Positions 1-2,939 of a stretch of 5,851 bases of DNA are shown here, one piece after another; the first letter of the stretch is position 1, and the number at the start of each line of letters is the position of its first letter. The DNA lies in the NCBI GenBank assembly GCA_016203265.1, contig JACQNB010000018.1:1-5851 (forward strand), in the 5' to 3' direction. Position numbers and translations under genes: made by a program. The notes under the pieces were generated by a model, which saw only the letters and a program-made list of their open reading frames with translations, was not told where the DNA came from and searched no databases. This stretch comes from Candidatus Woesearchaeota archaeon. Its GTDB lineage: Archaea > Nanobdellota > Nanobdellia > Woesearchaeales > ARS49.

Positions 1-888
1 CTCCTTTTCCTTGCCGCCCGGAGTCACTTCTGCCTCGATCGGCAGGATGATGCCCGAGTACACGGCGCCGGAGCCGATCACGGCGAGACCGTTCACGCGG
101 CCCACGCGCTTGCCCTCGGTCACGATGACCTCGTATTCCTTCTTGCGCTCGATGTACTTGTCCGCCATCTGCTGTTCCAACGGACGTGCCACTTTCTTGG
201 CCGCCTTGACATGCTCGGGCTGCACGAGCTTTGCTTCCTGCTCGAGCGCGATGTCGCCGGCTGCCCGCACCAATCCGCCGAGCTCGCGCATGCGGAGCGT
301 CAAGTGGTTCTTGCGGTTCGCGAAACGGCGCGCTTCCTGCACGATGGACTCGACTGCCGCCTTTGAAAAGTGCGGGATTTTCTTGTCCTTCACGACTTCC
401 TGCGCGACGAATACCGCGATCGCGTCGCGGTTTTCCGGCGTGTCGGGAAGCGTTTCCTTCATGAAGACCTCATACCCATAGCCGCGGATTCTCGAGCGCA
501 ACGCCGGATGCAGGTGCTGGACAGTCTCCACGTTGCCGGCCGCGACCAGGATGAAGTTGCACGGCACGGGCTCGGTGCGGACCATCGCGCCCGCGCTTCT
601 CTCGGACTGCCCCGTGATTGGATACTTGCCTTCCTGCAACGCGGTCAAGAGCTCCTGCTGCGTCTGCGGCTCCAACGTCGCGATTTCGTCGATAAAGAGG
701 ACTCCGAGATGCGCCTTGTGAATCATGCCCGCGACGACGCGCTCATGCGCCGGAGTGCCGAGGCCGCCGGAATTTGAGCAGAGCACTCCATTGACGATGA
801 CGTTTCCCGAACTCGTCGTCACATTATACAATTTTCCAGTATGCGACACTTTATTGATGTCCGTTATCATCTGAGTAACAAAAGTCAT
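1..888 (-). CDS. lonB: LonB C-terminal part preceded by 39-aa intein C-half (partial, runs off window)
   Basis: This open frame starts at ATG 888-886 and stays open for 296 codons to the window edge. Residues 1-39 are an intein C-terminal half: block F is around KLYNVTTSSG and block G is NGVLCSN ending at Asn39. The extein resumes at Ser40 with SGGLGTPAHERV, conserved in archaeal LonB. Then come Walker B (GVLFIDEI, D67 E68), sensor 1 (VAAGN, N119), arginine-finger candidates R131/R133 in HPALRSRIRG, a sensor 2 region (LRMRELGGLVRAAGD, about 197-212) and the start of the Lon protease domain (RVGRVNGLAVIG, from about 262). The catalytic Ser-Lys dyad would lie beyond the window. LonB is an ATP-dependent membrane protease. 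The N-terminal ATPase part is encoded by the preceding ORF, whose TGA overlaps this ATG. The frame is also open upstream of the ATG as far as a TAA at 987-985, so a frameshift inside 885-987 is the alternative to a real split gene. Protein identity is secure; the start is probable. Confidence 0.88.
   Translation of the reverse strand, partial: MTFVTQMITDINKVSHTGKLYNVTTSSGNVIVNGVLCSNSGGLGTPAHERVVAGMIHKAHLGVLFIDEIATLEPQTQQELLTALQEGKYPITGQSERSAGAMVRTEPVPCNFILVAAGNVETVQHLHPALRSRIRGYGYEVFMKETLPDTPENRDAIAVFVAQEVVKDKKIPHFSKAAVESIVQEARRFANRKNHLTLRMRELGGLVRAAGDIALEQEAKLVQPEHVKAAKKVARPLEQQMADKYIERKKEYEVIVTEGKRVGRVNGLAVIGSGAVYSGIILPIEAEVTPGGKEKE
772..888 (-). mobile_element. Intein C-half (IntC, 39 aa)
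   Basis: The codons from ATG 888-886 to Asn 774-772 encode block F and block G, followed by Ser+1 (771-769). The length is close to that of known IntC pieces such as those of split DnaE inteins (about 36 aa). Block G reads NGVLCSN, with Ser where His is normally penultimate. The terminal Asn and the +1 Ser nucleophile are intact, so C-terminal cleavage and ligation chemistry remain possible. Pyrococcus abyssi Lon intein is known to splice with Lys at the penultimate position, so loss of His does not by itself rule out activity. Confidence 0.85.
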
Positions 889-2939
889 GCCGTCACCGCA
901 CGAGGACCGAAATGATTCAGGATAAGATATAATGAGTTCGGCGAGAGATGGAGCGCCTTCATGACCCATTCGGCACCATGCCCTTTATTGATGAGTTCCG
1001 CGTATTTGTCACGTTTTCTCATTCCCCATCGTCCGAGCGCTGCATAGAGCCTCTTCTGCTTGTACTCGCAATAATTTATTTTCACGTTCATCAAGAAAAA
1101 CAGGACGTTATCAAATTTCTTCTCGATAAGCAGCCGGAATATGTTTGATTCGCCAGAGAGTTTTCGTTCGTAAATGGACGTTACTGACACACTCTTCCGC
1201 GCGAGATAACCCCGCAATGCCGCAAGAAATTGCAACCTATTCTGCCGCAATGCCGGAGAACCCGTTATCCCGACCTCAAGGCAGGTCAAATAGTTACCCC
1301 GTTTATGCATGATGGGCGTGCCCAACTCTCCCCCGATGAAAGAACCGAAAAATTCATCTTCGATGCCTCCGGCAATCCACCGGGGAACGTGCAATTCCTT
1401 GAGCGTCTTGTTGCCTTGCGGAGCGCCAAGAGCGAGTAAAAACCTGATGACGTTCCGGTTCGTATTCTGGTAGCACCAGGAATGACCGTATTCCCCGCCT
1501 TCAATGATGCGGCCATTCATTCCATGCCCAAACCCGAACAGTTCTTCGATATCTTTACCAAACTCCTCGACCGCTGCCTTTTCCGAGCTTGATAAGAAAA
1601 CGCCGTTAAGATTCTCAAAGATGCCGCCATCGCCGAATGTGGCGCCCAACACTTTTGCGATACGCGCAAGTTTCGGATTATCATGCCGTAACGGCAAGAG
1701 ATTCCGGCCCCTGAGCCACTCGCATGTTTGCAACGGCACCGGAACATGTTTTCCCGCATGCCACCACCTCACTTTCGCGGAAGGCTGGCCCATTGCCTTC
1801 GCGATGCGTTTGTATCCCCAGGACGGATTCTGCCTTGCAATGACGCTATATTGCGCATGGAGCCTGCACTGCTCACGTTGACGCGCATCATACGTGCTTA
1901 TGATATCAGTCTCATCAATCACGTGGTCAGGATTCACCAAAAGAGAATCACCAATCTTAAGCTGACTCGCTTCAACATACTCGACAACACCATTTTTTGA
2001 AACCGCAATCTTGTGTTCGGGAGTCACGCAAAGTTTCCTGCCATCGACCGTTAGTTTAACCAAATCCCCGACATAATCATATCGGTTCGCGGAAAGCACC
2101 TCGATTTCCGATACGGCACCTTCGCGCTCGCCAAGGACCGTGAGTTCGCCTTTTGGGAGAAAAATAGCTTCATAGTTCTTCCGTTCAGTCGAGGTTTCCC
2201 GATGTATATGAGGCTTACGCCAGTAGTTGTCCAGTGTGATATCGATCTTTTCAGGACGCATGCCCTGAGGGCCTTTCACAGTAAGATAGGCATCATCGGA
2301 AATCGTCTGGAACGGATCATGTTGCACGTCCCCGAGCAACGCGCCCGCATGCGAGCCGGTCGCGTCCCAAAAGGGAGCGTTCTTCTTCCCATAATTGTCG
2401 ACGATGACCTTCGGCACTTCAATACGCAAGTTGCCGAAGCCCTGGCGTTTTGCCATGTTCAGGAAGAACGCGAAACCCGCCAAAAACACCATGCCACCCA
2501 AGAAAAAGGCAGCGAACATGATGTCGGACTGATAGTAACTGCGCGCCCACCACGGCAGCACCATGGCGACGATGAGGAGAATGAACAGGATCCAGTTCTG
2601 GCCCTTGAAGAGATTTTGCGACTGCAGCCTGCCCTGCTGCGCCAAGGAACGCCCTTGGCCCGCGGTCATGGCGCGGATCAACGGCTGGTTCTCGTCGTTC
2701 GGGTTCGGGAACGCGACGATGTCCGCGAGCTTCTCTTTCGGCAAGAGCTCAGCAAGCGCAAGCCCGAGCATCGATTTCCCCGTTCCCGGCTCACCGATAA
2801 GCAGCACGTGCCTTCTTTGCTGCGCTGCCTTCTTGATGATCTCAACCGCGTCTTCCTGGCCGATGACTTGGTTGAGAATCGTGTCCGATACCTTGATGTC
2901 AGCCGTCGACGTGTACGAGAGTTTCTTTGCCATCCCCAT
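885..2939 (-). CDS. lonB: LonB N-terminal part fused to intein N-half with LAGLIDADG endonuclease
   Basis: This 684-aa ORF has two parts. Residues 1-211 are the LonB N-terminal region: an AAA+ domain with Walker A GEPGTGKS (49-56) and, inserted after it, two membrane helices (about 115-131 and 140-162) typical of archaeal membrane-anchored LonB. This part ends at GDVQHDPFQ. From Thr212 an intein N-half follows: block A (TISDDAYLTV), block B with the TxxH motif (T306, H309 in CVTPEHKIAV), then a homing endonuclease and a helix-turn-helix-like tail. The ORF stops with ...NHFGPRAVTA. Walker B, sensors and protease are missing here and sit in the overlapping downstream ORF, so this protein alone cannot be a working Lon. 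Met1 was chosen because it lies about 25 bp from the TATA box centre, fitting a leaderless transcript; Met3 is an alternative. The intein part is less GC-rich than the extein, suggesting transfer. Confidence 0.92.
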   Translation of the reverse strand: MGMAKKLSYTSTADIKVSDTILNQVIGQEDAVEIIKKAAQQRRHVLLIGEPGTGKSMLGLALAELLPKEKLADIVAFPNPNDENQPLIRAMTAGQGRSLAQQGRLQSQNLFKGQNWILFILLIVAMVLPWWARSYYQSDIMFAAFFLGGMVFLAGFAFFLNMAKRQGFGNLRIEVPKVIVDNYGKKNAPFWDATGSHAGALLGDVQHDPFQTISDDAYLTVKGPQGMRPEKIDITLDNYWRKPHIHRETSTERKNYEAIFLPKGELTVLGEREGAVSEIEVLSANRYDYVGDLVKLTVDGRKLCVTPEHKIAVSKNGVVEYVEASQLKIGDSLLVNPDHVIDETDIISTYDARQREQCRLHAQYSVIARQNPSWGYKRIAKAMGQPSAKVRWWHAGKHVPVPLQTCEWLRGRNLLPLRHDNPKLARIAKVLGATFGDGGIFENLNGVFLSSSEKAAVEEFGKDIEELFGFGHGMNGRIIEGGEYGHSWCYQNTNRNVIRFLLALGAPQGNKTLKELHVPRWIAGGIEDEFFGSFIGGELGTPIMHKRGNYLTCLEVGITGSPALRQNRLQFLAALRGYLARKSVSVTSIYERKLSGESNIFRLLIEKKFDNVLFFLMNVKINYCEYKQKRLYAALGRWGMRKRDKYAELINKGHGAEWVMKALHLSPNSLYLILNHFGPRAVTA
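893..897 (-). promoter_or_regulatory. Shine-Dalgarno-like GGTGA for the IntC-LonB start
   Basis: On the minus strand GGTGA (897-893) lies 4 nt before ATG 888-886 and can pair with the archaeal 16S 3' end (complement of the CCUCCACU region). It favours real initiation at this ATG, coupled to termination at the overlapping TGA. A five-base match could occur by chance. Confidence 0.45.
1035..1679 (-). other. LAGLIDADG homing endonuclease domain inside the intein N-half
   Basis: Residues about 421-635 of the 684-aa ORF match a two-motif LAGLIDADG endonuclease. The first motif is ARIAKVLGATFGDGG with acidic D437. The second, about 100 residues later, is FFGSFIGGELG with acidic E538. Each is followed by the usual pattern of strands and helices (for example LRGYLARKSVSVTSIYE). 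A D/E catalytic pair is compatible with activity, as in I-AniI. No stop or gap breaks the domain. Such enzymes cut the intein-free allele of the host gene and so spread the intein. A short helix-turn-helix-like segment follows (about 645-677, AEWVMKALHLSPNSLYLIL). Confidence 0.82.

What the first reader, a model, noticed from the sequence alone, without database searches (positions are those of the whole stretch)
772..2306. LonB intein split into two overlapping ORFs: candidate natural trans-splicing intein with endonuclease on IntN
Seen: the intein N-half ends at TGA 887-885 and the C-half starts at ATG 888-886 in another frame. The two share ATGA, and the exteins on either side are intact LonB. 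The break lies just before block F, the usual split point, and leaves a 39-aa IntC with a GGTGA element 4 nt before its ATG. Known: natural split inteins (for example DnaE) break here but usually lack an endonuclease. Inferred: LonB would be made as two proteins, one with Walker A and membrane helices, the other with Walker B and protease, that become active only after trans-splicing. Two alternatives are a sequencing or assembly indel, or a real frameshift mutation between 885 and 987.
Basis: partly seen in the sequence, partly recalled or inferred. Interest (0 to 1): 0.9.

Follow-up and report, generated by a model that had tools for sequence, protein, structure and literature searches.

The report
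Naturally split, mobile intein in LonB
In this archaeon the gene for the membrane protease LonB is broken, inside a self-splicing insert, into two separate genes; many related archaea share the same break, so the two protein halves are predicted to be stitched together after translation.

Summary
Minus-strand ORF1 2939..885 (LonB N-part plus a 473-aa IntN with a LAGLIDADG-type domain) and ORF2 from 888 (39-aa IntC plus LonB C-part) share ATGA, with GGTGA 4 nt before the ATG. It is no sequencing error: a 56%-identical relative breaks identically; none of 120 listed N-half homologues continues into LonB-C; of 120 listed C-halves, 116 carry exactly 39 aa of IntC and all read N|S. Of 27 readable two-piece genomes, 17 overlap by ATGA or TTGA; the other 10 range from -8 to +328 nt, some with a small gene between. 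A complete Ca. Heimdallarchaeum chromosome is split too. In sister orders LonB is three genes (LonB-N/IntN, free-standing endonuclease, IntC/LonB-C); in four genomes opposite-strand ORFs separate the halves, which rules out frameshifting as the general mechanism. Residue 1 is C, S or T wherever covered; block-B T and H are invariant. Intein trees contradict LonB trees in the four families tested, so at least the endonuclease part moves between lineages. Trans-splicing is predicted, not shown; a few bearers have broken pieces. Nine literature queries listed no description.

The parts
2307..2939 (-). LonB N-extein (211 aa): Walker A GEPGTGKS, two long predicted helices, ends ...GDVQHDPFQ
   Evidence: TIGR00764 match of ORF1; G49, G54, K55 of Walker A 104 of 104; long helices 95-136 and 139-165 in the model
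888..2306 (-). IntN, 473 aa: Hint N-part followed by the endonuclease region; begins with Thr1
   Evidence: Intein_splicing PF14890 E 5.2e-5, below its gathering score; Foldseek best hit TliVMA intein 7qss E 7.7e-10; residue 1 is C, S or T in all 120 rows that cover it of 122
2013..2024 (-). Block B TPEH (residues 306-309)
   Evidence: T306 and H309 are 104 of 104
888..1931 (-). Endonuclease region of IntN (residues 337-684), homologous to free-standing genes in sister orders
   Evidence: I-DmoI and PI-SceI class Foldseek hits
1626..1652 (-). LAGLIDADG-type motif 1 (VLGATFGDG, acid D437)
   Evidence: D437 104 of 104
1326..1352 (-). LAGLIDADG-type motif 2 (FFGSFIGGE, acid E538)
   Evidence: E538 103 of 104; its register against motif 1 is uncertain
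893..897 (-). GGTGA, ribosome-binding-type element 4 nt before the ORF2 start
   Evidence: sequence; SD-like words in 13 of 17 overlap junctions against 325 of 2559 control ATGs
885..888 (-). ATGA: stop of ORF1 (887-885) overlapping start of ORF2 (888-886)
   Evidence: same junction in relatives
772..888 (-). IntC, 39 aa, blocks F and G, ends ...NGVLCSN before +1 Ser
   Evidence: 39-aa IntC in 116 of 120 listed C-half homologues and N|S in 120 of 120
1..771 (-). LonB C-extein start (257 aa, cut by contig end): SGGLG, Walker B, AAA-LID
   Evidence: TIGR00764 E 6.4e-122; LonB_AAA-LID PF20436

Best explanation
The LonB gene is divided inside an intein into two separate, ATGA-overlapping genes: one encodes LonB's N-terminal part plus an intein N-fragment that carries a LAGLIDADG-type endonuclease domain, the other a 39-residue intein C-fragment plus the following part of LonB, and the two proteins are predicted to trans-splice into one LonB chain. 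Shown by sequence: two ORFs, conserved catalytic residues, the same split in many archaea with different spacers. Inferred: the second ORF is translated by re-initiation at the ATGA with its own GGTGA site; the halves associate; Thr1 takes the N-terminal acyl shift, Ser+1 the transfer and the C-terminal Asn cyclises, giving HDPFQ-SGGLG; the endonuclease drives spread into intein-free lonB genes.
For: Same residue-level break and ATGA in G010 at 56% identity. None of 120 listed N-half homologues contains the LonB-C motif; 116 of 120 listed C-halves have exactly 39 aa of IntC; N|S in 120 of 120. Junction frames 2, 0 and 1 in 20, 5 and 2 of 27 two-piece genomes, offsets -8 to +328. A DUF3795 gene (PF12675, E 2.8e-18) or other small ORFs sit between halves. 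Three-gene versions in sister orders, four with opposite-strand ORFs between halves. Split also in the complete Ca. Heimdallarchaeum chromosome, TAATG junction. The C-half was found in 41 of 41 bearers; a second, full-length LonB only in G230 (G626 also has a 31%-identical hit). Residue 1 always C/S/T where covered; T306 and H309 104 of 104. IntC pN well below pS in six of seven pairs. In G573 the endonuclease gene is interrupted while IntN and IntC stay open, as expected if splicing, not cutting, is what is needed. Model matches inteins and LonB. Horizontal signal.
Against: No splicing was observed. Thr1 is an unusual nucleophile (recalled), though one review lists Ser, Thr or Cys at this position (PMC8899391, passages seen). 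The penultimate His is absent (S here; K in 117 of 120 C-halves). The window's intein sits on a long branch (0.77) and lacks the common Phe2 (F in 88 of 104). Some bearers have broken pieces: G115 (C-half interrupted at the IntC/extein junction), G111 (N-half with stops, halves on two contigs), G572 (N-half and endonuclease interrupted), G573 (endonuclease interrupted). The window's LonB-C is cut by the contig end. Acid E538 of motif 2 is one position out of register with motif 1 if the glycines are aligned.
Confidence: 0.9

Rival explanations
1. Sequencing or assembly indel, or a recent frameshift mutation, in an ordinary one-piece intein.
For: A frame change at the junction would look like this in one genome; the window is from a 99-contig, 74%-complete assembly.
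Against: The same ATGA junction in G010 and 14 further two-piece genomes, many database proteins ending there, a complete chromosome, and spacers and genes between the halves in relatives.
Confidence: 0.02
2. Programmed frameshifting or re-reading at ATGA yields one continuous precursor with a cis-splicing intein.
For: 20 of 27 two-piece junctions put ORF2 in the same relative frame.
Against: Frames 0 and 1 in 7 of 27, spacers of 227-328 nt in 7 of 27, opposite-strand ORFs between halves in four genomes. I saw no slippery heptamer at the window's junction (reading, no scan). SD-like elements precede ORF2 in 13 of 17 overlap junctions.
Confidence: 0.03
3. The intein no longer splices; LonB works as two non-covalent subunits carrying intein remnants.
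For: Broken pieces in a few bearers; long branch and Thr1 in the window.
Against: Residue 1 stays C/S/T in 120 of 120 covered rows while neighbours vary freely, block B T/H 104 of 104, N|S 120 of 120; remnants would decay.
Confidence: 0.05

Closest known systems
Cyanobacterial DnaE split inteins (recalled; split inteins of cyanobacteria mentioned in PMC5874633, passages seen)
   Same: Hint domain broken before block F, short IntC starting at Met, halves fused to the two parts of one host protein, no penultimate His (recalled)
   Different: DnaE halves lack an endonuclease (recalled) and the host is a polymerase; here IntN keeps a LAGLIDADG-type domain, the host is LonB, the genes mostly overlap by ATGA
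Fractured genes with free-standing endonuclease between split-intein halves (gp41, IMPDH, NrdJ type; Dassa et al. 2009, paper not held; title seen in a reference list)
   Same: The sister-order form: IntN gene, endonuclease gene, IntC gene
   Different: Here the endonuclease is LAGLIDADG-type (recalled: the 2009 family is of another type), in cellular archaeal lonB; in the window's order the endonuclease is fused to IntN
Nanoarchaeum equitans DNA polymerase split intein (named in PMC8861304, passage seen; details recalled)
   Same: Natural split intein in a DPANN archaeon (recalled)
   Different: Another host gene, no endonuclease (recalled); not LonB
Continuous LonB intein at the same site, e.g. 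G008 (L021)
   Same: Inserted at HDPLQ|SGGLG of LonB; long enough to hold an endonuclease domain
   Different: One ORF, C1 and His-Asn end; would splice in cis
Endonuclease-bearing VMA inteins such as TliVMA (7qss)
   Same: Best Foldseek match of the model
   Different: Continuous, another host gene

Membership tests
Natural split intein | Intein encoded as two separate ORFs, each with its own stop/start | tested here: met
   inserted genes and opposite-strand ORFs in relatives
Natural split intein | The two exteins are parts of one known protein | tested here: met
   TIGR00764 matched by both ORFs at adjacent profile positions, 2-196 and 195-445
Natural split intein | Splicing residues kept: nucleophile at 1, block B TxxH, terminal Asn, +1 nucleophile | tested here: met
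   window: T1, TPEH, N|S; family:
Natural split intein | Break between endonuclease region and block F | tested here: met
   39-aa IntC, starting just before block F, in the window and in 116 of 120 listed C-halves
Natural split intein | Trans-splicing activity | not testable with these tools
   needs expression experiments
Class 1 intein (N-terminal nucleophile) | Cys, Ser or Thr at position 1 performs the first step | tested here: inconclusive
   residue identity met; chemistry with Thr1 untested
LAGLIDADG homing endonuclease | Fold and two LAGLIDADG helices with catalytic acids | tested here: inconclusive
   Foldseek hits to I-DmoI, PI-SceI, E-DreI; D437 104/104, E538 103/104; register of motif 2 uncertain, cleavage untested
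Fractured gene (free-standing endonuclease between halves) | Endonuclease as its own ORF between IntN and IntC | tested here: not met
   In the window it is fused to IntN. A separate endonuclease gene occurs in 11 sister-order genomes, interrupted in two of them

The most novel reading that the evidence does not exclude
A large archaeal family of split inteins is a mobile multi-gene element: it has cut the membrane protease LonB into two or three genes in DPANN and Asgard archaea, still homes between lineages although the intein is broken, and its break point serves as a landing site for extra genes; LonB activity would then depend on the meeting of separately made proteins.
Probability: 0.6. 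Interest if true: 0.92.

Novelty: new variant of a known kind. Interest (0 to 1): 0.85.

Why it matters
It adds a widespread family of natural split inteins in cellular archaea, in a protease, not DNA metabolism, with an endonuclease kept on IntN. The two-, three- and dispersed-gene forms give a natural series for how inteins break and how a split intein can still spread. The C/S/T variety at residue 1, with Thr the commonest in the sampled set (48 of 120), would let a rarely studied nucleophile be tested, and short 39-aa IntC pieces could be useful ligation tools. Automatic annotation, where a name is given, calls the halves things like 'ATP-binding protein' and 'ATP-dependent protease LonB', so LonB in these archaea is probably often misread as truncated.

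Tried and rejected
Indel or frameshift artefact: rejected. Programmed frameshift: rejected by differing frames, spacers and opposite-strand ORFs. In one search ten of the 31 loci looked at had no match to my LonB-C motif; six of them have LonB-C right next door with other residues there (TPAN or TPSN, seen), and the rest are G179 (resolved), G115 (broken), G111 (cut by a contig end) and G230. Horizontal transfer of the Hint part on its own is only partly supported: holding families together is rejected for f22 (p 0.017) and f72 (0.036) but not f84 (0.22) or f23 (0.16), while the endonuclease part rejects all four. f1 is not used as evidence, because G000 and G010 are not sisters in the LonB tree either. 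dS is near saturation in most pairs, so dN/dS was read only as pN below pS. A profile search of solved structures matched only the Hint part. Literature: nine queries (split intein with Woesearchaeota; with LonB; intein with DPANN and Lon protease; naturally split intein with homing endonuclease and archaea; fractured gene with split intein; intein with Heimdallarchaeum; with Woesearchaeota; split intein with Nanoarchaeum equitans; intein with LonB) listed no paper whose title or abstract start describes a split LonB intein. Of four papers (PMC5874633, PMC8899391, PMC7090010, PMC8861304) only passages were read; most subscription papers are not held.
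Full report
What is in the window. The minus strand holds ORF1, 2939..885 (684 aa), and ORF2, ATG at 888, open to the contig end. They share ATGA (888-885); GGTGA at 897-893 stands 4 nt before the ATG. ORF1 is LonB residues 1-211 ending HDPFQ, then a 473-aa IntN from 2306. ORF2 is a 39-aa IntC (888..772) and SGGLG... of LonB. Both match the LonB model TIGR00764, at profile positions 2-196 and 195-445. 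ORF2 is cut by the end of contig C59; the last 82 or so residues of LonB lie on C48 and a stretch between was not found.

Not an artefact. Among 26 genomes of the same family, G010 of another genus carries the same arrangement at 56% identity over ORF1, again with ATGA between a 688-aa and a 453-aa ORF. A database search with the intein region gave 234 hits (7997 candidates scored), 120 listed. With the window and G010 added, 115 of 122 rows are 675-761 aa long, and none of the 120 contains the GGLGTP motif that a fused LonB would have. Two longer ones (934 and 1144 aa) are long at their N-terminal side. The mirror search with IntC gave 135 hits; of 120 listed, 116 have exactly 39 aa before the splice site, all 120 read N|S, and 110 are 440-475 aa long.

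Genome survey. Intein matches at E up to 1e-40 occur in 30 of 352 genomes of the order, 21 of 371 sampled from the phylum and 18 of 378 sampled from the class; the sets overlap. Of the 30 in the order, 27 gave a readable two-piece junction; G115 (C-half interrupted), G111 (halves on two contigs, N-half with stops) and G230 (an intact LonB plus a second C-half with an endonuclease gene nearby) did not. In the 27: offset of ORF2 start from ORF1 stop -1 in 17 (16 ATGA, 1 TTGA), +6 in 2, -8 in 1, +227 to +328 in 7; relative frame 2 in 20, 0 in 5, 1 in 2. SD-like words lie 4-15 nt before ORF2 in 13 of 17 overlap junctions, against 325 of 2559 ATGs on both strands of the same loci. The spacers hold small ORFs: a 110-aa DUF3795 protein in G095 (PF12675, E 2.8e-18), and ORFs of 43-75 aa in G202, G117, G071, G103 and G284 that look alike by eye; the two of these tested had no Pfam match.

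Named records. The complete chromosome of Ca. Heimdallarchaeum endolithica PR6 (CP084167.1; phylum Heimdallarchaeota) has a 708-aa N-half and a 460-aa C-half joined by a one-base overlap, offset +2.

Three-piece form. In 11 genomes of sister orders the match covers the endonuclease region and lies in a separate ORF: 342-368 aa in eight, 395 aa from its first start in one, interrupted in G572 and G573. Stops that the search flagged in G356 and G360 lie before the gene's start. LonB-N with a short IntN (120-133 aa in the five intact ones measured) and LonB-C with IntC are separate genes. The C-half was found in 11 of 11; the N-half in 10 of 11 (not in G568, near a contig end). In G412, G573, G583 and G360 the IntN stop and IntC start are 5358, 3036, 2477 and 4177 nt apart with opposite-strand ORFs between. 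No single polypeptide can span such loci.

Splicing residues. Residue 1 is T 48, C 43, S 29 in the 120 of 122 rows that cover it; in alignment A1 T306, H309 and D437 are 104 of 104 and E538 is 103 of 104, while residues 214-225 vary widely. The penultimate residue is K in 117 of 120 C-halves, S in the window. In seven genome pairs IntC has pN 0.01-0.15; pS is 0.47-0.99 in six pairs and 0.04 in the seventh.

Structure. AlphaFold2 on A1 (104 sequences) gave mean pLDDT 82 and pTM 0.61. Foldseek in PDB: TliVMA intein 7qss E 7.7e-10, Thermococcus LonB 3k1j 2.2e-8, PI-SceI 1.2e-4, I-DmoI and others. TM-scores over the whole chain are low (0.24 or less).

Mobility. In the LonB tree of 46 rows, f22 (4 rows), f23 (6), f72 (5) and f84 (2) are starred clades. 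In the intein tree of 27 rows they are scattered; holding each together is rejected (p 0.00017, 0.0048, 3.2e-7, 3.3e-27). The groups were family labels, tested after the tree was seen. Split by part, the endonuclease region rejects all four, the Hint part two of four. So at least the endonuclease part moved between families, and parts may have been exchanged separately. In G278 and G280, 165 nt over the ORF1 tail, the ATGA and IntC hold 5 differences, while 600 nt on either side are 71% and 80% identical, which looks like a recent conversion tract.

Mechanism. Two genes are translated, the second probably by re-initiation. The halves are predicted to meet, splice and leave LonB with HDPFQ-SGGLG. 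Shown: gene structure, conservation, distribution. Inferred: re-initiation, association, Thr1 chemistry, endonuclease activity.

Known or new. Split inteins and fractured genes are known kinds (partly recalled). A LAGLIDADG-bearing split intein in LonB with two-, three- and dispersed-gene forms was not seen in the listings of the nine queries named in Tried and rejected. I therefore file it as a new variant of a known kind.

Noticed in passing
L045/L046 around the ORF2 start (G280, G278): 165 nt over the ORF1 tail, ATGA and IntC hold 5 differences while 600 nt on either side are 71% and 80% identical: looks like a recent conversion tract ending near the splice site.
   Followed up: partly
L036, L101, L109, L110, L037 between IntN and IntC: Small ORFs (43-75 aa, '...DYEILSKVKQLE...WRKYL...' in the longer ones) that look alike by eye sit in the split of several families; no Pfam match for the two tested.
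   Followed up: partly
L052:2913-3242: A DUF3795 gene inserted between the two LonB halves.
   Followed up: no
L045, L046, L104: LonB-N frames of 1144, 934 and 927 aa; the first two show, and the third suggests, a second continuous intein at the Walker A motif.
   Followed up: no
P0181: A 624-aa C-half that holds a further intein-like stretch inside LonB-C.
   Followed up: no
G004 (same genus as the window): A 96%-complete genome in which the search found no LonB, only weak paralogue-like hits.
   Followed up: partly
L021 (G008): A continuous intein occupies the same LonB site in the same family.
   Followed up: no
L094 / L069 (G573): The free-standing endonuclease gene is interrupted by a stop while the LonB/intein halves stay open: the endonuclease may be decaying after the split.
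   Followed up: partly
L099 (G230): A second LonB C-half with its own IntC-like start and an endonuclease gene on the same contig, beside an intact LonB elsewhere.
   Followed up: no
window 4216-5058 (-) and 5479-5850 (+): A PD-(D/E)XK nuclease with weaker Cas4 similarity, and a TctA-family membrane protein cut by the window end; a similar TctA-like ORF lies near LonB-N in L097 (my reading).
   Followed up: no
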